Positions 1,105-40,550 of a stretch of DNA of 47,084 nt are shown piece after piece. This DNA comes from Planctomycetota bacterium. Lineage in GTDB: Bacteria; Planctomycetota; Planctomycetia; Pirellulales; Thermoguttaceae. The translations under genes were made by a program, and so were the position numbers. The number at the start of each line of letters is the position of its first letter. Positions within the stretch are counted from its first letter, which is position 1. Below the pieces are notes generated by a model. The model had not been told where the DNA came from and ran no database searches. It saw only the letters and a list, made by a program, of their open reading frames with translations. The stretch lies in assembly GCA_029550925.1 (NCBI GenBank), contig JAKPGL010000059.1, forward strand, positions 1-47,084. The letters are read 5' to 3'.

Positions 1105-1309
1105 CGATTCTTTTTTGGGGCCTTCTCTTGGCTGGTTCTATTCGAGATGTGTTCGGATTGTTAGTGTCCCGGCAACAACGGGAAGAAACCGAATGGATGC
1201 TGGCATAATCCCTTTCGGTAAGGTATTCTGGGATAAAACCTCTTTTTTGAGGTTTTCCAAGTGTAAGCAATGGGTTTCCCAAGGGCACTTACAAAGAAAG
1301 GCCACACCG

Positions 1310-3715
1310 ATGCAGTACGTTCGCGGAACAAACTGGCTGGTTGGGATGGTGGTTCTGGCATTGGGGCTTGGAGCGTGGCAGGAAACCCAATCGGCCGAAG
1401 GGCCGAGACATCGGAAACTCTCCGCCGTGCCGTTTACCCAGGTCAAGGTGCAGGACATTTTCTGGGCGCCCCGGATCGAAACCAATCGGAAGGTTTCGCT
1501 GCCGCACAATTTCACCTGGTGTGACCAGACGGGCCGGATTTCCAATTTTGCCAAGGCGGCCAAACTGACGCCCGGTCAATTTGAGGGCATCTATTTCAAC
1601 GATTCCGATGTCTATAAGGTGCTGGAGGGCGCCTCGTACAGTCTGGCTGATCTGCGGCAGGCGGAGTTAGAGAAAAAGGTCGATGAGGTGATCGCTCTGA
1701 TTGCGGCGGCCCAGCAACCGGACGGCTATCTGAACACCTATTACACCCTTCAAGAGCCGAACAAACGCTGGACCAACCTGCCGGTGATGCATGAGCTTTA
1801 TTGTGCGGGACATTTGTTCGAGGCGGCGGCCGCCCACTACCGGGCCACCGGTAAGAAGACGCTTTTGGATGTGGCCGTCCGGTTGGCCGACCATATTGAC
1901 GGCATTTTCGGCCCCGAGAAACGCCATGGCGTACCCGGCCACGAAGAGATCGAACTGGCCCTGGTGAAACTCTACGAAGTAACCGGCCAGGAGAAGTATT
2001 TGAAATTGGCCGAGTTCTTCCTGGATATCCGGGGCGACGAAAAGAAACGCCAAGGCGGAGACAAGCTCTACGGGCACATGTTGCAGGATCACAAGCCGAT
2101 CCGTCAGATGGACGAGGTGGTCGGTCATGCGGTGCGCATGATGTACTTGCTGTGCGGGGTGGCCGATGTCGCCGCCTACACCGGCGACGAGGGCTTCTTG
2201 CAGGCCCTGGATCGGCTGTGGAAAGATGTAACTTTATATAAGCTGTACATTACCGGCGGCATCGGCGCCCGCCATGCCGGCGAAGCCTTCGGCGACCGAT
2301 ACGAACTGCCCAATCCAAGCGCTTACTGCGAAACCTGCGCCGGAATTGGGCTGGCGCTATGGGCGCATCGGATGGCCCTGCTGCACGGAGAGGCCCAATA
2401 CGCCGATGTGCTGGAACGGGTCCTCTACAATGGATTCTTGTCCGGCGTATCGCTCCAGGGGGATAAGTTCTTCTATGTCAATCCGCTGGAATCGGCGGGC
2501 AACCACCATCGGCAACCGTTCTACCCCTGTGCCTGCTGCCCGACCAATGTAGTGCGGGTGTTGCCGTCGCTGCCGGGGTATCTCTATGCGGTGGGCCAGC
2601 AGGATTTGTACGTGAATCTTTATGTGGCCAGCCGGGCAGAGATACCGATCGGCGGCGGGAAACTAGTCGTCGAGCAACAGACCCGGTACCCCTGGGAGGG
2701 CAAAGTAGCCCTTATCCTCAGCCCGGAAAAAGAGATGGAACTAACGGTCCATTGCCGGCTGCCCGGCTGGACCGAAGGCCGACCGGTCCGGGTCCAAGTG
2801 GCCGGCCAACCGGTCGAAAAACCCCAAGTGCAAAAAGGCTATCTGGTCTTCCGCCGCAGTTGGAAGCCGGGCGACCGGATCGAGCTGGACTTCCCGATGG
2901 AGGTGGATCGGATCGAAGCGCATCCATTGGTCGAGGCGGATCGGGGCCGGGTGGCCATCCAGCGGGGGCCGATCGTCTATTGCTTCGAGGCGGTCGATAA
3001 CGGCGGCCGGGTCCGAAACATCCAACTGGCCCGAGACCCACAGTTCCAGACCGAATGGAAACCGGACCTATTGGGCGGCGTGGTGGTCATCTCGGCCAAG
3101 ACGCGGGACGGACGCACCGCGCAGGCCATCCCCTACTACGCCTGGGACCATCGGGAACCGGGCGAAATGATCGTCTGGGTGCGTCAAGACGGCAAAACCA
3201 AAAACCCCAAAACGGATGATCCGAGTTGGCAGGGTCGGCTGTATCGGCCGTTGGACCCGGACACGCTGGGCCCCTCCGAACCGCTTACTCTTATGGAAAT
3301 GGCCGAGCCGTCCGTCTCGTTTGTTGGGGTGGGAGTGCTCTCGGCCCTGAACGACGGCCTGGAACCGAAAAACTCCTGCGACCACGACATCCCCCGATTT
3401 ACCTGGTGGAACCACCTGGGTACCAAAGAATGGGTGCAGTACGATTGGCCGGAGGTGCAGACGCTGCGGGCCGTCCAAGTCTATTGGTTCGACGACGAAC
3501 CGGTCAAACGCCATTGCCGAACGCCCCAGTCGTGGCGGCTTTTGTACAAAGACGGCCAAGAGTGGAAACCGGTCCTTACCAAAGACCCTTACGGCACGGA
3601 GCCGAACAAATACCACCGGGTGCAGTTTGAACCGGTGCGGACCACGGCCCTTCGGATCGAAGTGCAACTGAAACCCAACTGGTCCGGCGGCATTTTGGAA
3701 TGGAAAGTGGAATAG
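1310..3715 (+). CDS. Secreted GH127 beta-L-arabinofuranosidase-like protein
   Basis: The product (801 residues from this start) belongs to glycoside hydrolase family 127 (old DUF1680), whose studied members cut beta-L-arabinofuranose from plant glycans. Residues 1-30 form a signal peptide (hydrophobic run ending near AWQETQSA). The metal and nucleophile cluster is visible: Glu341 and Cys343 in YCETCAG, then Cys409-Cys410 in CACCPTN, matching the Glu-x-Cys and Cys-Cys ligands of the zinc site. After the (alpha/alpha)6 core and beta domains, about residues 670-801 add a C-terminal beta domain resembling a discoidin/CBM fold (ends LRIEVQL...GILEWKVE). The frame is open from 1115, but the ATG at 1310 is preceded by AAAGAAAGG and begins the signal peptide. 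Exact substrate is uncertain. Confidence 0.9.
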   Translation: MQYVRGTNWLVGMVVLALGLGAWQETQSAEGPRHRKLSAVPFTQVKVQDIFWAPRIETNRKVSLPHNFTWCDQTGRISNFAKAAKLTPGQFEGIYFNDSDVYKVLEGASYSLADLRQAELEKKVDEVIALIAAAQQPDGYLNTYYTLQEPNKRWTNLPVMHELYCAGHLFEAAAAHYRATGKKTLLDVAVRLADHIDGIFGPEKRHGVPGHEEIELALVKLYEVTGQEKYLKLAEFFLDIRGDEKKRQGGDKLYGHMLQDHKPIRQMDEVVGHAVRMMYLLCGVADVAAYTGDEGFLQALDRLWKDVTLYKLYITGGIGARHAGEAFGDRYELPNPSAYCETCAGIGLALWAHRMALLHGEAQYADVLERVLYNGFLSGVSLQGDKFFYVNPLESAGNHHRQPFYPCACCPTNVVRVLPSLPGYLYAVGQQDLYVNLYVASRAEIPIGGGKLVVEQQTRYPWEGKVALILSPEKEMELTVHCRLPGWTEGRPVRVQVAGQPVEKPQVQKGYLVFRRSWKPGDRIELDFPMEVDRIEAHPLVEADRGRVAIQRGPIVYCFEAVDNGGRVRNIQLARDPQFQTEWKPDLLGGVVVISAKTRDGRTAQAIPYYAWDHREPGEMIVWVRQDGKTKNPKTDDPSWQGRLYRPLDPDTLGPSEPLTLMEMAEPSVSFVGVGVLSALNDGLEPKNSCDHDIPRFTWWNHLGTKEWVQYDWPEVQTLRAVQVYWFDDEPVKRHCRTPQSWRLLYKDGQEWKPVLTKDPYGTEPNKYHRVQFEPVRTTALRIEVQLKPNWSGGILEWKVE

Positions 3716-6408: not shown

Positions 6409-7767
6409 ATGGCCCAAACGTCTTCTTCTCCGTCGCCGCTCCAGGATGCCTGGCAACTGTTTGATCCGGCCGAGGGGTGGAACCTAAAATGGGCCGGGCA
6501 TCTTTTACGCCGGGTCGGTTTCGGTCCCACCTGGCCAGAACTCCAAAAGGCCCTTTCGCAAGGACCGCAAAAGACCGTCGATTCCCTATTCCAGCCCGTT
6601 CCCGAGGCGGAGGCATTCAACGCCCAGATGGACCAGTGGGACTCCTCGGCCACCACGCTCCCAGCCCTGCGGGCCTGGCAGCTTCGGCGCATGCTGGAAA
6701 CGCCTCAGCCGCTGGTGGAAAAGATGACCCTTTTCTGGCAGAGTCATCTGGCCTTGGGTAATGTGCGTAATGTGCCGCCGCCGTTGATCCGGGACTATCT
6801 TCGGACGATTCGGCGTCATGCCCTGGGCCGATTGGACCAGCTTTTGCAGGCCGTAGTGCTTCAGCCGGCCATGCTCCTTTCCCACGGCGCAGAGGCCAAT
6901 CGGAAGGCCCGGCCCAGCGAACACTTCGCCCATGTGCTCCTGGAACATTTTACCGTTGGGCCGGGCGCTTTTACAGAAAAAGATGTTCAAGAGACGGCCA
7001 GGGCCCTGACCGGCCGCTTTGTACTCCGGGACGAATTGCGATTCATCGAGCGGGAGTACGACGACGGGCCGAAAACCCTTTTCGGCCAAACTGGTCCCAT
7101 CGGGGCGGAGGAACTTTTCTCCCTGCTTGCCCGGCAGCCGGCCACGGCCAAAGCAATCGCCCGTAAACTCTACCGATTCTTTATTTCCGAGGCGGAAGAG
7201 CCGGCCGAGGCGTTGCTGCAACCCCTGGCCGAGCGATTGATCCAGGGGCAGACGATCGGCCAAGTGGTGGAAACAATGGTTCGGTCCAAGTGTTTTTTTT
7301 CCCCAGCGGCGTATCGTCGTCGGGTGAAAGGCCCGGTGGAATGGGCCTTGGGGCTGCTGCGGCCCATGGAGACCCTTGTGCCCACAGAACCGTTAGGCCA
7401 TGCTCTGGTGGAACTAGGCCAAGCTCTGGGCGAACCGCCTACCCCGGCCGGTTGGTCCGACGGCGCTCATTGGATCACCCCGGCCCTGCTTTTGCTCCGG
7501 GGCAAATGGGCCCAGCAGTTTTGGGCCTCCGGCAGCCCGTTCGGCCAGAAGCTCGACCCGGTCGGCCTGGCCCAGCGCCATGGCGCCAGTGCTCCATCCG
7601 CCCAGGCCGAGTTCCTACTCCAGCTTTACCTCCAAGGGGATATGCCAGCCGAAATGCGAAACAAATTGCTCCGGGAGAGCCAGTCGGCCGGTCGTCAGAC
7701 CAGCGCCGACGCCCTCCGCCGCTTATGCCAAACCTTGGCGTTGCTCCCGGAGTTCCAGTTGGTTTGA
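6409..7767 (+). CDS. DUF1800 family protein
   Basis: The 452-residue product matches the DUF1800 pattern: an early HLLRRVGFGPTWPEL motif (about residues 28-42), then a helix-rich body with ...MTLFWQSHLAL, LLEHFTVGPGAFTEKDVQETARALTG and KLYRFFISEAEEP, all typical of the family. These proteins are common in planctomycetes and nearly always precede a DUF1501 protein, as here. Biochemical function is unestablished. No signal peptide is visible. GAGGAG seven bases before the ATG fixes the start. The DUF1501 gene follows after 103 bases on the same strand, so the two are probably cotranscribed and act together, probably at the cell surface. Confidence 0.9.
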   Translation: MAQTSSSPSPLQDAWQLFDPAEGWNLKWAGHLLRRVGFGPTWPELQKALSQGPQKTVDSLFQPVPEAEAFNAQMDQWDSSATTLPALRAWQLRRMLETPQPLVEKMTLFWQSHLALGNVRNVPPPLIRDYLRTIRRHALGRLDQLLQAVVLQPAMLLSHGAEANRKARPSEHFAHVLLEHFTVGPGAFTEKDVQETARALTGRFVLRDELRFIEREYDDGPKTLFGQTGPIGAEELFSLLARQPATAKAIARKLYRFFISEAEEPAEALLQPLAERLIQGQTIGQVVETMVRSKCFFSPAAYRRRVKGPVEWALGLLRPMETLVPTEPLGHALVELGQALGEPPTPAGWSDGAHWITPALLLLRGKWAQQFWASGSPFGQKLDPVGLAQRHGASAPSAQAEFLLQLYLQGDMPAEMRNKLLRESQSAGRQTSADALRRLCQTLALLPEFQLV

Positions 7768-7870
7768 GCCGCCCACGTTAGAGGGCGTTTGGGGGGTATG
7801 GATAAATAGGCAAAAAACCTGGGGACTACCGTCCCCGGCTAAGAGAAACCAATCCATAAAGGACCTGGTT

Positions 7871-9169
7871 ATGCGTCCAAACCACTCTCCTTCAACCGCT
7901 CCGTGGCATACCCGAAATGGTTCGGTCCAGGCCGCCCCGGTGGACCGACGGCGGTTTTTAATCCAATTGGGCGGCGGTTTGGCCGCGGCGATGGTCGGCC
8001 CGACCGGACGGGTTTGGCCCAATACCTCCGAAACGGCTTCGACGCCGCGGACTGACCCGGACAAGCAGGACCGGGTGCTGGTGGTCTTGCAAATGACCGG
8101 CGGCAACGACGGCTTGAATACGGTCGCACCGTATGAGGATGATGTGTATGGCCGGAGTCGGCCCACGTTGCGGCTTCGGCCCAGCGAGGTGCATCGGCTG
8201 GCCGACGGACTGGGGCTGCACCCAGAAATGAAAGAGGCGGCCCGGCTGTTTCACGAAGGCCGACTTGCCCTTGTCCAGGGAGTGGGCTATCCGAACTCCG
8301 ACCGGAACCATCCCGAGGCCATGCGCGATTGGCAAACCGGTCGGGTACCGGGCGTCCATACGCCCACCGGTTGGCTGGGCCGAGCCGCTGACCTGCTCCT
8401 GCAACAAAATCCCTTCTCTCTGCCAGCCGTCTTCGTGGGCCGAATCGAAATCCCCTTTACCCTCCGGGCGCAGACGGCGGTGGTCCCCAGCCTGGCTCAA
8501 TACCCGGATGTCCCCCTACCGATCAAGAACCTTGAAAAGCTGGGGCTGCCAATGGCCGCTACCGCCGCCGATACCCCCCTGGAAGACTTTGCCAGCCGAA
8601 GCTGCCGCCAGGCGATCCAAATGGCAGAAAAACTCCAAAAATCGGCGGCTTCCCCTTCGCGGACGGAATATCCCCGGTTTGGTTTGGCCCAGGATTTACA
8701 GGTAGTAGCCCGGTTGCTCCGAGCCGGTCTGGGCATACGGATTTTCTACGTCGAACTGGGCGGGGGCGGCCTTGGCGGCTTCGATACGCACGCCCATCAG
8801 GCCGCCAACCATGGAGCCTTGCTCCGGGAGTTTTCCGCCTCGGTCGCTGCCTGGGCCGAGGACCTGGCCAAAGACCATACCCTGGACCGGGTCCTGCTGA
8901 TGACCTTTTCGGAATTTGGCCGAACGGTGCGGGAAAACGGGCGTCGCGGCACCGACCACGGCGCAGCCCAACCGATCTTTCTGGTGGGCGGCCGAATTCG
9001 GCCCGGCCTGATCGGCCCCGCTCCCAACCTGGCCGACCTGGATGCCGACGCCCCCAAACCGCAGACCGATTTCCGCAGTCTCTACCGAACCGTTCTTCAA
9101 GACTGGCTCGGCCTGAAGGCCAAAACCGTGCTCGGCGCCGACTGGCCCCCAGCCCCCATCCTCTCGTAA
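7871..9169 (+). CDS. DUF1501 family protein with Tat signal
   Basis: DUF1501 proteins resemble the alkaline phosphatase/sulfatase fold and are exported; their substrate is unknown. The 432-residue product starts with a twin-arginine signal: Arg26-Arg28 in DRRRFLIQLGGGLAAAMVG. Body motifs include VVLQMTGGNDGLNTVAPYEDDVY, GYPNSDRNHPEAMRDWQTG, LGGGGLGGFDTHAHQ and TFSEFGRTVRENGRRGTDHGAAQP, all diagnostic. The His/Asp residues of the last two could bind metal. The frame is open upstream, but the ATG at 7871 follows AAGGA and begins the Tat signal. It is paired with the DUF1800 gene. A palindrome array starts immediately after the stop codon. Confidence 0.92.
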   Translation: MRPNHSPSTAPWHTRNGSVQAAPVDRRRFLIQLGGGLAAAMVGPTGRVWPNTSETASTPRTDPDKQDRVLVVLQMTGGNDGLNTVAPYEDDVYGRSRPTLRLRPSEVHRLADGLGLHPEMKEAARLFHEGRLALVQGVGYPNSDRNHPEAMRDWQTGRVPGVHTPTGWLGRAADLLLQQNPFSLPAVFVGRIEIPFTLRAQTAVVPSLAQYPDVPLPIKNLEKLGLPMAATAADTPLEDFASRSCRQAIQMAEKLQKSAASPSRTEYPRFGLAQDLQVVARLLRAGLGIRIFYVELGGGGLGGFDTHAHQAANHGALLREFSASVAAWAEDLAKDHTLDRVLLMTFSEFGRTVRENGRRGTDHGAAQPIFLVGGRIRPGLIGPAPNLADLDADAPKPQTDFRSLYRTVLQDWLGLKAKTVLGADWPPAPILS

Positions 9170-12867: not shown

Positions 12868-14391
12868 CTAGAGTTCCGGCGGGGTCCACGGGGGGATGCC
12901 TTCTTCACGAACTTGCTTTTCATAAAGCTCAAAATAGGGCCGACGAGGCGAAAGCGGTGTATCTTCATTGACGAGCATCGTTCGCACTTCCGCCCACCAG
13001 GCCTCGTAGGCCGACCGCATGGCCCGGGCTGCTTCCGGAAACCGGTCGATTACGTTGGTCGTTTCGCCCGGATCGTTCACCAGGTCATAAAGCTCCTGGT
13101 TATTGACCAAACGGAAACGTTGGTTCCGGACCGCACACTGCCGGTATTTATAGTCATCCGGATTGGCCCCTTTGGGCCAACGACCCACATGGGTAAACAG
13201 GAACCGGTCCGGCCAGGGGGCTTTGGGATTTTGCAGCAGCGGCACCAGCGACCGGCCGTCCAGCTTCTGGATGTTCGACGGCAACTTAGCCCCGGCCAGT
13301 TCGACAAAGGTGGGGAACAGGTCGATATGGGCGGCCAAGGCGGGGATGTCTTGCCCTTCTGGCAAAACGCCCTTCCACCGCCAGAAACAGGGCACACACG
13401 TGCCTCCTTCATAGGGGGTGCCTTTGCCAGAGCGGAACCCGGCATGGTAGAGCTCATACGGCCGGCCGTTTCGACGGGTTTTCCGAGGACCGGCCTGGCC
13501 GTTGTCCGTCATAAAGATCACCAACGTCCGTTCCCACAATTGCCACTCGTCCAGCTTTTGCATCAACAGACCGATATTGTCGTCGATATTGGCGATCATG
13601 CCGCATCGGCCAGCCACTGTCTCGTCAAAACCGGCTTCCAGGAAGGGGCGTTTATATTTTTCCGGGGCGATCATCGGATCATGCGGCGCATTGGGCGTAA
13701 GATACACAAAGAACGGTTGCCCGCTATCTTTCTGTTTTTTGATCCAGCCCAAGGCCTGCCGGAAGAAGACATCGGTGCAGAAACCCTGGGTTTTGACGAA
13801 TCGGCCGTTGTGGCGGATGACCGGGTCGAAATAGCGGTTCTGCTGGTTGGGCGGGGCGTCAGCGCAACTGCAATCATACGCCTGTCCAATGCCGCCCGCC
13901 CCATGAATGAACACCTCCTCAAAGCCGCGGTTCTGTGGCTGGTAGGGTTCTTCGTCCCCCAGGTGCCATTTGCCGAAAATCCCCGTATGATACCCGGCCG
14001 ACCGGAGCACCTCGGCCAGGGTTACCACGCCCAAGGCCATCCGCTCCCGTTCCAGGATGGTGTGAGTAACCCCGTTTTTGAACTCATGGCGGCCGCTCAT
14101 GATGGCCGACCGGGTCGGAGCACAGGTAGGGCTAACCTGAAAATTGGTAAATCTTGTACTTATCTCATAGAGCCGATCCAGATTCGGCGTTTTCAGGTCC
14201 GGATTGCCCAGGCAACTCAGATCGCCTTTGCCCTGGTCGTCGGTCATGATGAGGATGATGTTGGGGCGTCGGCCTGCAAGTGGGCTTGGTTCGGCTGGGC
14301 AAACTTCTGTAACACATAGAAGGCCCAGCCAAGCCGCCAGGAGTATCCACCCCCTATTTCGACGAGCAACCACACAGGAGAACGGATTCAT
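12868..14391 (-). CDS. Secreted arylsulfatase-type sulfatase
   Basis: A 507-residue sulfatase that would release sulfate from sulfated glycans or other esters after export. Residues 11-33 form a signal peptide. Metal ligands appear in IMTDDQGKGDLSC (Asp51-Asp52). The formylglycine motif is Cys90 in CAPTRSAIMSGR, of the C-x-P-x-R type that needs an activating enzyme encoded elsewhere. KWHLGD and FVYLTPNAPHDP supply further active-site Lys/His residues. The frame stays open to 14517, but the ATG at 14391 has AGGAGG upstream and starts the signal peptide. It lies 291 bases upstream of the esterase-like gene on the same strand; joint action on acylated, sulfated polysaccharide is an inference. 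Confidence 0.93.
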   Translation of the reverse strand: MNPFSCVVARRNRGWILLAAWLGLLCVTEVCPAEPSPLAGRRPNIILIMTDDQGKGDLSCLGNPDLKTPNLDRLYEISTRFTNFQVSPTCAPTRSAIMSGRHEFKNGVTHTILERERMALGVVTLAEVLRSAGYHTGIFGKWHLGDEEPYQPQNRGFEEVFIHGAGGIGQAYDCSCADAPPNQQNRYFDPVIRHNGRFVKTQGFCTDVFFRQALGWIKKQKDSGQPFFVYLTPNAPHDPMIAPEKYKRPFLEAGFDETVAGRCGMIANIDDNIGLLMQKLDEWQLWERTLVIFMTDNGQAGPRKTRRNGRPYELYHAGFRSGKGTPYEGGTCVPCFWRWKGVLPEGQDIPALAAHIDLFPTFVELAGAKLPSNIQKLDGRSLVPLLQNPKAPWPDRFLFTHVGRWPKGANPDDYKYRQCAVRNQRFRLVNNQELYDLVNDPGETTNVIDRFPEAARAMRSAYEAWWAEVRTMLVNEDTPLSPRRPYFELYEKQVREEGIPPWTPPEL

Positions 14392-15137
14392 GGGAATCCT
14401 CCTTCGGACAGTGGTAGGCCGATCCATGATTTCCCTCATATTCCGCATCCCCCCGGCCATTTCTGGACAGATAATACTACAAGAGAACAAAAAGAACAAT
14501 TGGTTCTGTCGAAACAATTTTCATGGTGGGAGGCCAAATCAAAACAGTTCACGGTTCGGGGAGAGGCCCGTGTTTCGGTCCATATTGCGATCTGAGTAAC
14601 ACCGTTTGTCCAGACTGCTGTTAACTCAGGCTAGACAGCCTGGGTTGCAATCCCGGACTCTCTGGGAACGGTACGCAAAAAACGTCGATGAAATCTTCCC
14701 TTTGGGATAGTCTCTTCTCACCTGCTGGGAATCTCTCAACAGGGCTGAGGCCGGTTTCCATAACAGACGGCGTTCCGGGCCGCCTCCCTTGGAAAAAAAC
14801 CTTTCTATAAGAAAGGAACCCTTTTATTAGCTAACCCCTGGGAGCTATGATAAAAGGAAGGCAACCGTGGAGAAATGGAAAAGACATCGTGCGATTCCGG
14901 TCTCGAACATTTTCGTCGAACGGAAAAACGTTGTCGTGTAAACAGCAAAACTCTGGGGCCTTATTGCGTCTGCTTGCTGGCGATCTGGGAATCCGGTCAT
15001 AAGAAATCCCGGAGGATTCTGGAGTACCGTTTTTCACGGAGATGCCAAAACCGAAGCTCTTCGAGGAGATAGTAGAGGTTTCTATTTCCATCTTCCACCA
15101 GTGGGCATTCCATTTTTTAGAAAGGTAAAACCTTTTC
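14392..15137. other. Intergenic region between sulfatase and ftsH
   Basis: This 746-base divergent space should hold promoters for both genes. No gene is convincing. A frame of 102 codons on the minus strand (14831-15139) has no family features. The stretch contains a degenerate GTAACACCGTTTGTCCAGAC palindrome near 14596-14615 and a minus-strand terminator-like hairpin at 14793-14816. What transcript that hairpin ends is unclear. Confidence 0.5.
14793..14816 (-). terminator. Minus-strand intrinsic terminator without an obvious gene
   Basis: Read leftward, CCTTTCT-TAT-AGAAAGG (14800-14816) is followed by seven T (14793-14799). This is a clean terminator shape, with only noncoding sequence between it and the ftsH start at 15138. 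Confidence 0.55.
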
Positions 15138-36614: not shown

Positions 36615-39600
36615 GTGGGACATCTGGATTATTTACCTGGAACCTTTTTCGGCCCTTCCAATTTGGTGGCCCTGGTGCAACATCGGGCAATGCACCAGCC
36701 GGACGACATTGCATTCACCTACCTGGTGGATGGTGAAATGCAGGAAGTCCATATTACGAACCGAGAATTAGATCGGCAGGCGAGGGCCATTGGCGCCTGG
36801 TTACAACAGCATGGATTGGTAGGGGAACGAGCGTTGTTGTTGTATCCGGCGGGGCTGGAGTTCATTGCCGCCTTTTTCGGCTGCCTCTATGGGGGGGTAG
36901 TGGCCGTCCCGGTCTATCCGCCCCGAAGAAACCGGTCTTTGGCCCGTATTCAGGCCATTGCGAATGATGCGGAAGCGAAGGTGGCCTTGACGACTCAGGC
37001 TGTCCTAGAGTTGGTTCGTCCGATCGTCGAAGAAACCCCGGATCTGAAAAGATTGACCTGGCTGGCCACCTGCCAAGTTCCGCCGCAAATGGCCGACCAG
37101 TGGGAAACGCCCGATGTGCATGGCGATACGCTGGCGTTTCTGCAATACACCTCCGGGTCCACGGGCGTCCCGAAAGGGGTGATGCTCAACCATGCCAGCC
37201 TTCTGCACAATTCCGCTTTGATTGCCTATGCCTTTGAGCATACCCGATCCGGTATCGGGGTGTTTTGGCTTCCTAGTTATCACGATATGGGCCTGATCGG
37301 CGGGATTCTCCAGCCGCTTTACATGGGGCGGCCCAATATTCTGATGTCGCCAATGGCTTTCCTGCAACGGCCTTATCGTTGGCTGGCCGCCATCTCTCGA
37401 TATGGAAGCCAAATCCGGGGTACGGTAACCAGCGGGGGCCCCAATTTCGCCTATGATCTATGTGTACAAAAAATCACTCCAGAACAGCGAAAATCTTTGG
37501 ATTTGAGTAAATGGGGCGTCGCCTTCAATGGGGCCGAGCCGGTTCGGGCGGAAACAATCCAGCGGTTCTGCGAGGCGTTTGCCCCGTGCGGGTTTCGACC
37601 GGAGGCGTTTTATCCGTGTTACGGCCTGGCGGAAGCCACCCTGATCGTCTCCGGCGGATACGCCAAAGAACCGCCCGTGATCCGTTCTTATGACGCCGAA
37701 CTGCTTGCGATGGGAAAAGTCTCCCCCCGTCCGAAGGGTTCTGCCGGGGCGCATTCTTTGGTCGGCTGCGGCAGCGCCCTGCTGGACCAACGGATCGTCA
37801 TTGCCGACCCAGACACCATGACCACCGCCCCGCCCGGTACGGTGGGCGAAATCTGGGTTCAGGGGCCAAGTGTGGCTTTGGGATATTGGGGCCACCCCGA
37901 AGCCACCCAAACCACCTTCCAAGCCTACCTGAAAGACACCGGCGACGGCCCCTACCTGCGGACCGGCGATTTGGGCTTCGTCGAGAATGGAGAACTTTTC
38001 ATCACCGGCCGATTGAAAGACTTGATCATTATCCATGGGCTAAATCACTATCCCCAAGATATTGAACTCACCGTCCAGCATTCCCACCCCCGACTCCGTC
38101 GAGATTGCGGCGCCGCGTTCACTGTGGAAGTCGATGGCCAGGAAAAGCTGGTGATCGTCCAGGAAGTCGAACGTCGTAAACAAGGCCATTGGGAAGAAAT
38201 CTTTCAAGCCATCCGTCGAGCGGTCGCCAAAGAACATGACCTAGTCGTCCAGTCCATCCTGCTGCTTCGGGCCGGCAGCATCCCCAAAACTTCCAGCGGA
38301 AAAATCCAGCGCCATGCCTGCCGAGACGGCTATCTTCACAATACCTTGGAAGTGGTAGCCCGATGGGACGCTCCGGCGATGGCGGAAACGCCTTCCTCAA
38401 CTCTGTCAGAAGCAAGACCTTCGCTTGCCTTGGCGGTTGGCTCAGAGGGGGGCGCAGCGGCGGCGGCTGACGCATCGCCTGCTGGCGTTATACCAACCTC
38501 CCTTGGTTCTTGCAGCCCCCGGGCTGGGGCAGGCGTCTTCCGAGGCGGGTCGGAGAATGCGCCGGTCGAATCGGCGTCTGTTCCAGACGCCTGGCAAGAG
38601 GGAGGCAATGGGGCGCCCACGAAGTCTGCTACCCGGCCCGTCGATCCTGCCGCCCGCCAACGCGTCATCCAGACCGTGCTTGAGGAAGTCCGCCGCGTCG
38701 CCCGAGAACGGGCCGACGGACTTACCCTGGATAGCTCCATCCTGGACCTCGGCATGGACTCCATCGAACGGATGGAAATCGTCGCCTCGTTGGAAGAGCG
38801 GTTCGGGGGCCGATTCCCGCCGGAAATCCTGCCCGATCTGATTACTTGCCGACAAGTGGTCGAGGCGGTGGAAACCTATCTCGGCGTAGAACCCCGTTCC
38901 CTGAAAACCGCCCCTCCGGATGTCCACATTCCAGAGGAGTATTACCGGTTCGAACGATTTCCCGAATATCTTAAACTCCAAGAAAATTTCCAGCGGTTGG
39001 AAGCCTTGGGAGGCGGCAACCCCTATTTTACCGTACACGAAGGGATCACCAACGACCGAACCATCATCGGCGGGCGCGAGTACATCAACTACTCCAGCTA
39101 CAACTACATCGGGGCCTCCGGCGATCCCGAGGTGATCCGGGCGGCACAAGAAGCGGCGGCCAAATATGGAACTAGTGTGTCGGCCAGCCGACTGGTCTCC
39201 GGCGAAAAGCCAATCCACCGCCAGCTCGAACAGGGTATCGCCCGGCTGCTGGGTGTCGAAGACGCGATCGTATTTGTTGGCGGCCATTCGACCAACGAAA
39301 CGGTCATCGGCCATCTGTTCGGCCCAGGCGACCTGATTTTGCACGACGCCCTGGCCCACAACAGTATCTTGCAAGGGTCGATCCTGTCCGGCGCCCGACG
39401 TCGGCCGTTCCCTCACAACGACTGGCAAGCCGCCGACGAAATCCTCCGTCGCTACCGCCATGAATATCGCCGTGTGCTTCTGGTCATTGAAGGCGTCTAT
39501 AGTATGGACGGCGATATTCCTGATCTGCCTCGGTTCATCGAGGTGAAAAATCGGCATAAAGCCTTGTTGATGATCGACGAGGCCCACTCGATAGGGACCA

Positions 39601-40160
39601 TCGGCCCCCGAGGTCGGGGAATCAGCGATTACTTCGGCGTCCCCGCCCCAGAAGTCGAAATCTGGATGGGGACCTTGAGCAAGACCTTTGGCAGTTGTGG
39701 CGGCTACATTGCCGGCGCCAAGGCCCTGGTCGAATATCTGAAATACACGGCGCCGGGATTCGTCTATAGTGTGGGGATGCCGCCGCCGGCCGTTGCCGCC
39801 GCTTTGGCCGCCCTCCATATCCTCGAAACCCAGCCCGAACGCACCCATCGGCTCCAACAGCGGGCCCGATTGTTCCTCGATTTGGCCAAACAACGAGGTC
39901 TGAATACAGGAACCAGTCGGGATTCGCCGGTTGTACCGGTTATTTTAGGCAATTCGGTCCATTCCCTGTTGCTTTCTCGGGCGCTGCGAGACCGTGGGAT
40001 CAACGTCCAGCCGATCCTTTACCCGGCGGTAGAGGAAAGTGCGGCCCGATTGCGATTTTTCCTCACCTGTCTGCACACCGAAGAACAAATTCGCTATACT
40101 ATCGACGCTGTTTGCGAAGAATTGGAAAAGATTCGAGCTGGACGTTTGCACGACCGATAA
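36615..40160 (+). CDS. Fusion: fatty-acyl-AMP ligase, acyl carrier protein, alpha-oxoamine synthase
   Basis: An 1181-residue three-part enzyme. About residues 1-585 are a fatty-acyl-AMP ligase: P-loop YTSGSTGVPKG from 178, YGLAEATLIVSGG, and the closing GKIQRHACRDGYL. A low-complexity linker (595-675) follows. About 675-765 are an acyl carrier protein with phosphopantetheine site Ser716 (LGMDSIERM). About 775-1165 are a PLP-dependent alpha-oxoamine synthase with Lys1023 in GTLSKTFGSCGGYIAG and DEAHSIGTIG. The order implies: activate a fatty acid, load it on the carrier, condense it with an amino acid to an amino ketone, as serine palmitoyltransferase does in sphingolipid synthesis. The amino acid and product are unknown. 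The start is GTG at 36615 with GGGAGG 12 bases upstream; a nearer ATG is out of frame. Confidence 0.9.
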   Translation: MGHLDYLPGTFFGPSNLVALVQHRAMHQPDDIAFTYLVDGEMQEVHITNRELDRQARAIGAWLQQHGLVGERALLLYPAGLEFIAAFFGCLYGGVVAVPVYPPRRNRSLARIQAIANDAEAKVALTTQAVLELVRPIVEETPDLKRLTWLATCQVPPQMADQWETPDVHGDTLAFLQYTSGSTGVPKGVMLNHASLLHNSALIAYAFEHTRSGIGVFWLPSYHDMGLIGGILQPLYMGRPNILMSPMAFLQRPYRWLAAISRYGSQIRGTVTSGGPNFAYDLCVQKITPEQRKSLDLSKWGVAFNGAEPVRAETIQRFCEAFAPCGFRPEAFYPCYGLAEATLIVSGGYAKEPPVIRSYDAELLAMGKVSPRPKGSAGAHSLVGCGSALLDQRIVIADPDTMTTAPPGTVGEIWVQGPSVALGYWGHPEATQTTFQAYLKDTGDGPYLRTGDLGFVENGELFITGRLKDLIIIHGLNHYPQDIELTVQHSHPRLRRDCGAAFTVEVDGQEKLVIVQEVERRKQGHWEEIFQAIRRAVAKEHDLVVQSILLLRAGSIPKTSSGKIQRHACRDGYLHNTLEVVARWDAPAMAETPSSTLSEARPSLALAVGSEGGAAAAADASPAGVIPTSLGSCSPRAGAGVFRGGSENAPVESASVPDAWQEGGNGAPTKSATRPVDPAARQRVIQTVLEEVRRVARERADGLTLDSSILDLGMDSIERMEIVASLEERFGGRFPPEILPDLITCRQVVEAVETYLGVEPRSLKTAPPDVHIPEEYYRFERFPEYLKLQENFQRLEALGGGNPYFTVHEGITNDRTIIGGREYINYSSYNYIGASGDPEVIRAAQEAAAKYGTSVSASRLVSGEKPIHRQLEQGIARLLGVEDAIVFVGGHSTNETVIGHLFGPGDLILHDALAHNSILQGSILSGARRRPFPHNDWQAADEILRRYRHEYRRVLLVIEGVYSMDGDIPDLPRFIEVKNRHKALLMIDEAHSIGTIGPRGRGISDYFGVPAPEVEIWMGTLSKTFGSCGGYIAGAKALVEYLKYTAPGFVYSVGMPPPAVAAALAALHILETQPERTHRLQQRARLFLDLAKQRGLNTGTSRDSPVVPVILGNSVHSLLLSRALRDRGINVQPILYPAVEESAARLRFFLTCLHTEEQIRYTIDAVCEELEKIRAGRLHDR

Positions 40161-40223: not shown

Positions 40224-40550
40224 ATGCCAGCCCCGGCGCCATATCCCGCCTCAGAAGCGATCCCCTCGCTTTGGCTGGTTGCGCCGCTCCGAAAAAGGTC
40301 ATCGGCTGGCTTCCGGTTCGTTGCAGAGGTAACTCGATTGCTCACCGAGCAAGAAGTCGCACGCAGTTGGAGGAACCTGTTTAATTCCCCTGACTTCGGA
40401 GAGGAGACCTTCCGAAAAGCCGAACGGCTGCTCGAAGAACTCCGTCCGGAAAGTCCCCTACGGCATCGGCTAGCCCAAGAACTGGCCGAACTGCGAAAAA
40501 TCCGGGCGCAACGCAAAAAATCAGCAGCCCGGCAAAAAGTCTCCCACTAA
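40224..40550 (+). CDS. Small hypothetical protein
   Basis: A 108-residue product with no family I recognise. The C-terminal half is highly charged and helical (about residues 50-105: FRKAERLLEELRPESPLRHRLAQELAELRKIRAQRKK), suggesting a small nucleic-acid- or protein-binding helical hairpin. No ribosome site precedes the ATG at 40224; a downstream start is possible. Codon use in the second half resembles genuine genes here. It sits alone between the fusion gene and mutS. Confidence 0.5.
   Translation: MPAPAPYPASEAIPSLWLVAPLRKRSSAGFRFVAEVTRLLTEQEVARSWRNLFNSPDFGEETFRKAERLLEELRPESPLRHRLAQELAELRKIRAQRKKSAARQKVSH

What the first reader, a model, noticed from the sequence alone, without database searches (positions are those of the whole stretch)
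36615..40160. Single protein joining fatty-acid activation, carrier and alpha-oxoamine synthase
FAAL, ACP (Ser716) and PLP synthase (Lys1023) lie in one chain, so an acyl group could be activated, carried and condensed with an amino acid without CoA. This would make an amino ketone lipid, such as a sphingoid-base-like or prodiginine-type product. No reductase, N-acyltransferase or transporter gene is adjacent, so the pathway must be split or the product is used as such.
Basis: partly seen in the sequence, partly recalled or inferred. Interest (0 to 1): 0.6.

Follow-up and report, generated by a model that had tools for sequence, protein, structure and literature searches.

The report
Self-loading sphingolipid-starter enzyme in planctomycetes
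A single planctomycete protein appears to activate a fatty acid, hold it, and join it to serine to begin making sphingolipids, which would mean that a large group of bacteria makes these membrane lipids in a way that usual searches may overlook.

Summary
The ORF at 36615-40160 (+) is real: FAAL, ACP (Ser716) and alpha-oxoamine synthase (AOS, Lys1023) in one 1181-aa chain, conserved in Pirellulales-type planctomycetes. The architecture is in print, without function, for Blastopirellula marina (PMC3870968). What is added here is a supported role. The synthase is not a KAPA synthase: the genome has its own BioF and Kbl, and an AU test rejects grouping with BioF (p 6e-23). It lies outside the classical serine palmitoyltransferase (SPT) clade too, and groups with a Pseudomonas AOS from an SgaAB-like polyketide cluster; SgaB of P. 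fluorescens has proven L-serine-specific SPT activity (PMC12134224). The 'missing' partners exist elsewhere in the genome: ceramide synthase (bCerS) and reductase (CerR) homologues, with no stand-alone SPT found. In 196 genomes of the order, AOS and bCerS are together in 163 and both absent in 18; 15 are discordant. In the phylum sample, all 77 genomes with an SPT-like protein, and five with this fusion instead, have bCerS. Best reading: a self-loading, CoA-independent SPT-type gateway to ceramide. Substrate, product and activity are inferred, not shown.

The parts
36615..40160 (+). Whole gene: FAAL-ACP-alpha-oxoamine synthase, 1181 aa, GTG start
   Evidence: full-length homologues
36657..38369 (+). 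FAAL (fatty acyl-AMP ligase) domain, residues 15-585
   Evidence: Pfam; closest solved relative is the Synechococcus olefin-synthase FAAL 7r7e, phmmer 1e-188, 52% identity
38379..38642 (+). Predicted disordered linker between FAAL and ACP, residues 589-676
   Evidence: pLDDT under 50 in the AlphaFold model
38670..38864 (+). Acyl carrier protein domain, residues 686-750; phosphopantetheine Ser716 (codon 38760-38762)
   Evidence: Pfam; Ser716 in 80 of 80 aligned rows
38952..40139 (+). Alpha-oxoamine synthase domain, residues 780-1175; PLP Lys1023 (codon 39681-39683), with Asp988, His991, His915
   Evidence: Pfam; Lys1023 in 77 of 80 aligned rows; fold match to SPT 3a2b Z 53.4, rmsd 1.6 over 386 residues; tree
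40338..40550 (+). Small conserved gene just downstream (70 aa, TTG start); often a neighbour, role unknown, not shown to belong to the pathway

Best explanation
The protein is a self-loading serine-palmitoyltransferase-type enzyme. The FAAL domain adenylates a free long-chain fatty acid and passes it to the phosphopantetheine arm on Ser716 of its own ACP. The C-terminal PLP domain (Lys1023) then condenses the ACP-bound acyl group with L-serine, with loss of CO2, giving a 3-ketosphinganine-type long-chain base without CoA. A bCerS homologue and a CerR homologue, encoded on other contigs of the same genome, acylate and reduce it to a ceramide-type membrane lipid. Shown here: the domains, the conserved catalytic residues, the phylogenetic place of the synthase, and the co-occurrence with bCerS and CerR. 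Inferred: CoA independence, fatty acid length, serine as the amino acid, reaction order, and that the lipid is made.
For: (1) The 59-row ML tree puts the window's AOS in a 22-row clade (UFBoot 98, SH-aLRT 92) that also holds the Pseudomonas L172 AOS, which follows a reducing type I PKS with an SDR and an LTA-synthase-like gene nearby. PfSgaB, from a cluster so described, was purified and is an L-serine-specific SPT (PMC12134224 section 8, read whole). AOS identity to L172 is 57.5%. (2) BioF grouping rejected, p-AU 6.4e-23; the genome's own BioF (450.7 vs 426.45) and Kbl (653.2 vs 493) pass their cut-offs. (3) Own genome: bCerS homologue G000:C173:80546-81667 and CerR homologue G000:C113:26070-27083; for CerR the next-best own hit is 3.4e-14 against 5.9e-57. 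(4) 196 genomes of the order: AOS and bCerS together 163, AOS only 4, bCerS only 11, neither 18. The 18 lie in five families, four of which also hold genomes with both. (5) 294 genomes of the phylum: 77 of 77 with an SPT-like hit (E 1e-110) have bCerS; the 5 with the close fusion and no such hit also have it; 16 of 16 same-class f3 genomes lack bCerS and are not among the 77. (6) Best fold match of the AOS domain is SPT 3a2b, Z 53.4, Kbl next at 51.7; the six best sequence matches in the PDB are SPTs. (7) The nearest solved FAAL has structures with palmitoyl and stearoyl adenylate.
Against: No activity, lipid or expression data. The domain scores below all three SPT equivalog cut-offs (262.1 vs 500, 296.9 vs 640, 210.9 vs 670), has bioF as its best single score, and lies outside the classical SPT clade. 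bCerS, CerR and the fusion are not linked in this genome. CerR passes 1e-60 in only 93 of the 163 genomes with AOS and bCerS, and in 6 genomes with neither. 15 of 196 genomes are discordant. AOS relatives occur without bCerS: G097, whose stand-alone AOS L015 is inside the 22-row clade; G220 (L027) just outside it; the four f28 fusions; G107 has only a weak bCerS hit, 1.9e-16 (several of these are incomplete drafts). So neither architecture nor clade alone predicts ceramide. Many genomes of family f99 have two AOS matches, not examined. The Fisher p (1.6e-14) ignores relatedness. That L172 is an orthologue of PfSgaB rests on gene order; PfSgaB's sequence was not compared.
Confidence: 0.78

Rival explanations
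1. Same chemistry but another amino acid (alanine or glycine), giving 1-deoxysphinganine- or aminoketone-type bases, which bCerS and CerR may still process.
For: The sphingolipid literature allows alanine use by Spt (PMC11334938 section 20). No serine-specific residue was mapped here.
Against: [quoted passage not shown]
Confidence: 0.1
2. Secondary-metabolite enzyme: the long-chain base or amino ketone is released as a signal or antibiotic-like product, and bCerS/CerR use another long-chain base.
For: Relatives of the AOS are attached to or follow PKS modules (L121, L124, L172); AOS relatives in G097, G220 and the four f28 genomes occur without bCerS.
Against: Presence across the order (AOS match in 167 of 196) looks like core metabolism; no other SPT candidate was found in the own genome, whose three strong AOS are BioF, Kbl and this one; paired presence and absence with bCerS.
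Confidence: 0.08
3. KAPA (8-amino-7-oxononanoate) synthase with its own acyl loading for biotin.
For: The best single NCBIfam score of the domain is bioF, 344.7 bits; PMC3870968 labels the group 8-amino-7-oxononanoate synthase by its database look-up.
Against: Below the bioF cut-off 426.45; the genome has a separate BioF above it; grouping with BioF rejected, p-AU 6.4e-23.
Confidence: 0.01
4. Prodiginine- or tambjamine-type (PigH-like) aminoketone synthase.
For: PigH-type enzymes are ACP-AOS fusions (recalled; PMC3870968 lists a CP-CP-PLP2 protein in Streptomyces griseoviridis).
Against: No pyrrole-pathway gene was recognised among the neighbours that I annotated (not every ORF of the window was scanned); co-occurrence with bCerS. 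Not tested by tree.
Confidence: 0.02

Closest known systems
PfSgaA/PfSgaB, PKS-derived sphingolipid cluster of Pseudomonas fluorescens MYb115 (PMC12134224)
   Same: AOS of the same clade, judged by the SgaAB-like Pseudomonas plasmid pair L172; acyl chain presented by an assembly-line partner; product a 3-keto long-chain base
   Different: There the chain is built by an iterative PKS on a separate protein; here a ready fatty acid is loaded by a FAAL in the same chain. There an SDR (KDSR type) is proposed to reduce the ketone; here CerR and bCerS homologues are present
AasR + AcpR + SPT of Caulobacter and E. coli BL21 (PMC9386255)
   Same: Fatty acid activated by an acyl-ACP synthetase of the FAAL kind, carried on a special ACP, condensed with serine by an AOS; CerR and CerS downstream
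   Different: Separate genes. The BL21 SPT belongs to the classical clade. The solved E. coli FAAL 3pbk is 30% identical to the window's FAAL, against 52% for the olefin-synthase FAAL. Looks like an independent route to the same layout (inference)
A-CP-PLP2 proteins A3ZWL3 (Blastopirellula marina) and A1ZVW4 (Microscilla marina) in the survey of Milano et al. 2013 (PMC3870968)
   Same: Same domain order; A3ZWL3 is from a planctomycete and is probably a direct homologue (not compared by sequence)
   Different: That table gives cluster type and product as '?' and the label 8-amino-7-oxononanoate synthase
Classical bacterial SPT (Sphingobacterium 3a2b; planctomycete stand-alone SPT-like proteins L142-L171)
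   Same: Fold (Z 53.4 to 3a2b), catalytic residues, presence together with bCerS
   Different: Separate clade (98/90), stand-alone; in many other planctomycetes a neighbour of bCerS and of a CerR-like gene

Membership tests
FAAL (fatty acyl-AMP ligase) | Sequence and fold of FAAL rather than acyl-CoA ligase | tested here: met
   Top solved matches are FAALs, 7r7e 1e-188; best fold match 7r7f, Z 53.6, rmsd 10.3 over 554 residues (the large rmsd probably reflects a turned C-terminal subdomain)
FAAL (fatty acyl-AMP ligase) | FAAL-specific insertion/helix and rejection of CoA (PMC8460268, passages) | not tested
   Residues not mapped; CoA rejection needs an assay
Alpha-oxoamine synthase family | Fold-type I PLP enzyme with catalytic Lys, Asp, His | tested here: met
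   Lys1023 77 of 81 rows, Asp988 78 of 81, His991 80 of 81, one of the 81 rows being an unrelated ORF; fold
Serine palmitoyltransferase, NCBIfam equivalogs NF047599, NF047600, NF047603 | Score above curated cut-off | tested here: not met
   262.1/500, 296.9/640, 210.9/670; note that no genome of the phylum sample passes NF047599 (0 of 294)
Serine palmitoyltransferase, classical bacterial clade | Falls in the clade with 3a2b and E. coli BL21 Spt | tested here: not met
   Separate 29-row clade (100/99)
SgaB-type PKS-linked SPT | Clade with the AOS of an SgaAB-like cluster | tested here: met
   22-row clade, UFBoot 98, SH-aLRT 92, with L172 inside; PfSgaB itself not compared
SgaB-type PKS-linked SPT | Serine + acyl thioester gives 3-ketosphinganine | not testable with these tools
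   Needs enzyme assay
BioF (KAPA synthase) | Score above TIGR00858 cut-off and grouping with BioF | tested here: not met
   344.7 vs 426.45; p-AU 6.4e-23
Rhodobacterial AasR/AcpR/SPT system | Same three activities with CerR and CerS partners | tested here: inconclusive
   Domains and partner homologues present; not linked in an operon, synthase not in the same clade, activities untested
PigH-type synthase | Grouping with PigH | not tested
   No PigH sequence obtained

The most novel reading that the evidence does not exclude
Pirellulales make ordinary membrane ceramides starting from an NRPS-like assembly-line protein: one chain activates, carries and condenses the acyl group, and this fusion replaced the stand-alone SPT that other planctomycetes keep beside bCerS and CerR. 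The PKS-derived sphingolipid clusters of Pseudomonas would be an offshoot of the same AOS, with the FAAL-ACP loader exchanged for a polyketide synthase.
Probability: 0.5. Interest if true: 0.75.

Novelty: new variant of a known kind. Interest (0 to 1): 0.62.

Why it matters
If true, most members of the window's order (163 of 196 genomes examined here have both AOS and bCerS; named relatives suggest the order is Pirellulales) are little-recognised candidate sphingolipid makers. The window's enzyme misses all three SPT cut-offs and lies outside the classical SPT clade, so searches built on known SPTs may pass it over. It would link polyketide-type sphingolipids to core membrane lipids, show a second, fused solution to CoA-independent SPT loading, and give a single protein on which fatty acid choice, ACP delivery and PLP condensation can be studied together. 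It also makes planctomycete ceramides directly testable by lipidomics.

Tried and rejected
Biotin role: rejected. Classical SPT membership: rejected. Gene-neighbourhood clue: the neighbours of the fused gene are not conserved. Of 35 loci of at least 18 kb, RNase E/G and DUF2344 were matched in 1, mutS in 0 and ptsI in 3 (two of those at 24-25% identity); only the small ORF after it recurs (6 of 35 at the strict threshold, more in the search). Small ORF as a pathway partner: weakened. It lies within 8 kb of the AOS in 51 of the 74 genomes with both places listed, but is also present in genomes without AOS and bCerS, e.g. G295, G305, G332. Closeness to eukaryotic LCB2, suggested by the motif GTLSKTFGSCGGY: not resolved, SPTLC2/LCB2a leave from an open fork. 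Genomes with bCerS but no AOS match at 1e-85 (11): g212 genomes G343 and G395 carry another stand-alone AOS on a long branch (L232, L235, with L246 of G333); G294 carries a divergent copy (L228); in G383, G387, G319, G330, G420, G463 the copies that I placed are BioF- or Kbl-like, with further unplaced copies in G387 and G330; in G466 and G354 nothing passed 1e-60. G333 was counted as AOS-positive at 2.6e-87 although that hit may be this other AOS. The 92-row tree did not finish its careful search, only the quick tree is reported; the 59-row tree left out 36 of those rows, including L077, L099 and L113, and added 3 PDB fragments. The literature searches named in the full report listed no paper assigning this role; subscription journals are mostly not held and bioRxiv preprints are not held as such.
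Full report
What is there. The window lies on contig C20 of a 4.9 Mb, 233-contig draft genome. The closest named relatives of the protein are records titled Thermoguttaceae and Pirellulales (86% in the best segment of L038), so I take the organism to be such a planctomycete, though it is unnamed. The ORF 36615-40160 (+) encodes 1181 aa: AMP-binding plus DIP2-like C-terminal domain, PP-binding, Aminotran_1_2. AlphaFold with a 36-row alignment gives a mean pLDDT of 79.9 with a disordered linker at 589-676. Best fold matches: Synechococcus olefin-synthase FAAL (Z 53.6, rmsd 10.3 over 554) and SPT 3a2b (Z 53.4, rmsd 1.6 over 386), with Kbl at 51.7, so the fold alone does not choose between AOS types. 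Ser716 is kept in 80 of 80 and Lys1023 in 77 of 80 aligned rows (the window's row and two doubled genes included, one unrelated row not counted).

Which alpha-oxoamine synthase. No NCBIfam equivalog shown is passed: bioF 344.7 of 426.45, SPT 296.9 of 640 and 262.1 of 500, Kbl 287.6 of 460. The genome holds two other strong AOS copies, and these are a BioF and a Kbl by their own cut-offs. In a 59-row IQ-TREE tree the window's domain sits in a 29-row lineage (100/99) apart from BioF, Kbl, ALAS and the classical SPT clade. Inside it, a 22-row clade (98/92) joins the planctomycete fusions, a PKS-AOS protein (L121), a stand-alone AOS (L015) and the AOS of a Pseudomonas plasmid (L172). Forcing the window's row into BioF costs 361 log units, p-AU 6.4e-23. 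In L172 the AOS follows a type I PKS with KS, AT, DH, ER-like, KR and ACP domains, and an SDR and an LTA-synthase-like gene lie nearby. This matches the PfSgaAB description, in which SgaB was purified and shown to be an L-serine-specific SPT, with an SDR proposed as reductase (PMC12134224, passages and section 8 whole). I did not have PfSgaB's sequence.

The missing partners. Taking the E. coli BL21 sphingolipid genes as probes (yghO as the acyltransferase and ECD_02852 as the epimerase/reductase, named so in PMC9386255, passages; region), the own genome has a bCerS homologue at C173:80546-81667 (35% to YghO, 4.7e-67). It also has a CerR homologue at C113:26070-27083 (42% to the CerR-like protein of L148 that stands by SPT and bCerS in another planctomycete). 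Both are unlinked to the window.

Co-occurrence. In 294 genomes of the phylum, 77 have an SPT-like protein at E 1e-110 (none above the curated cut-off) and all 77 have bCerS. The five genomes with the close fusion (G000, G167, G121, G205, G274) have no such SPT-like hit and all have bCerS. The 16 same-class f3 genomes lack bCerS and have no such SPT-like hit. In 196 genomes of the order, an AOS match (E 1e-85) is in 167, bCerS in 174 and CerR (E 1e-60) in 109. AOS and bCerS are together in 163, AOS alone in 4, bCerS alone in 11, neither in 18 (Fisher p 1.6e-14, uncorrected for kinship). The 18 lie in families f93, f94, f97, f98 and f104; in all but f97 other genomes have both. bCerS and CerR lie within 3.5 kb of each other in 33 of 84 genomes with both places listed. 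Against: CerR at that threshold is in only 93 of the 163 and in 6 genomes with neither. AOS relatives without bCerS occur in G097 (L015, inside the clade), G220 and the four f28 genomes with fusions about 40-43% identical in the AOS; G107 has only a weak bCerS hit. Many f99 genomes show a second AOS match that I did not examine.

Mechanism. Adenylation by the FAAL domain, transfer to Ser716, decarboxylative condensation with serine at Lys1023, then N-acylation and reduction by the unlinked enzymes. The order of the last two steps is disputed for Caulobacter (PMC11324152 and PMC11087976, passages). The palmitate/stearate range is a guess from the olefin-synthase FAAL. Everything enzymatic is inference.

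Known or new. The domain order A-CP-PLP2 in Blastopirellula marina and Microscilla marina was tabulated in 2013 without product (PMC3870968, passages and section 7 whole). Rhodobacteria use separate AasR, AcpR and SPT (PMC9386255, passages). Planctomycete Spt-like proteins were counted in Black Sea MAGs (138) by a search that requires E 1e-70 to known SPTs (PMC11334938, passages and section 20 whole); whether any were fusions I cannot tell. Searches of the held library: FAAL with SPT gave 0 papers; FAAL/AOS/ACP, Planctomycetes with sphingolipid and SPT, SPT with ACP/adenylation/fused, CerR and Planctomycetota, sphingolipid with Pirellul, ceramide with Planctomycet, and lipidome searches listed none whose title or abstract start assigns this role (only the best-ranked part of the longer lists was shown). 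A FAAL review holds none of the terms oxoamine, PLP, pyridoxal, planctomyc, serine palmitoyl or sphingo (PMC11837247, term search). One cautionary case: a Nostoc AOS called a putative SPT by similarity did not make the SPT product (PMC8895605, passages).

Verdict.

Noticed in passing
window 40338-40550 (+): Small conserved gene (70 aa, W..LF...KAE.LL.ELRPESPLRHRL..EL.EL) with no Pfam family above cut-off; in 96 of 196 genomes of the order, within 8 kb of the AOS in 51 of the 74 with both places listed, but also in genomes lacking the fusion.
   Followed up: partly
L077 5285-8812, L099 260-3964, L113 9866-13633: Three full-length fusions have lost the PLP lysine (Tyr, His, Ala at position 1023) and form a long branch; possibly inactive or repurposed synthase domains.
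   Followed up: partly
L121 3019-10722, L124 2713-10305: The same AOS type fused to a full reducing PKS (KS-AT-DH-ER-KR-ACP-AOS, about 2,550 aa) in other planctomycetes; at least G121, G205, G367 and G382 of family f2 show both this and the FAAL-ACP-AOS length.
   Followed up: partly
L232, L235, L246: Genomes of genus g212 have bCerS and CerR but no clear fusion; they carry a different stand-alone AOS on a long branch near the SPTs, perhaps another SPT replacement.
   Followed up: partly
L125, L126, L127, L128, L123: More distant FAAL-ACP-AOS proteins (family f28, and a second copy in G121); the f28 genomes show no bCerS, so their product may differ.
   Followed up: partly
G295, G329, G350, G363, G369, G374: Six genomes of the order have a CerR-like match at 1e-60 but neither the AOS nor bCerS; the reductase family may have another use there.
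   Followed up: no
L002 1153-3291 (-): A second FAAL (712 aa) in the own genome, 49% identical to the window's FAAL, about 2 kb from a weak match in an open frame of 1,976 codons; a separate assembly line may exist.
   Followed up: no
L173 10001-11122: Nocardia farcinica plasmid 2 record has an AOS 43.7% identical to the window's domain, at the base of the lineage; no annotated feature is held for the stretch.
   Followed up: no
window 1115-3715, 6409-7767, 7580-9169, 12868-14517: GH127 beta-L-arabinofuranosidase, DUF1800, DUF1501 and a sulfatase in the same window.
   Followed up: no
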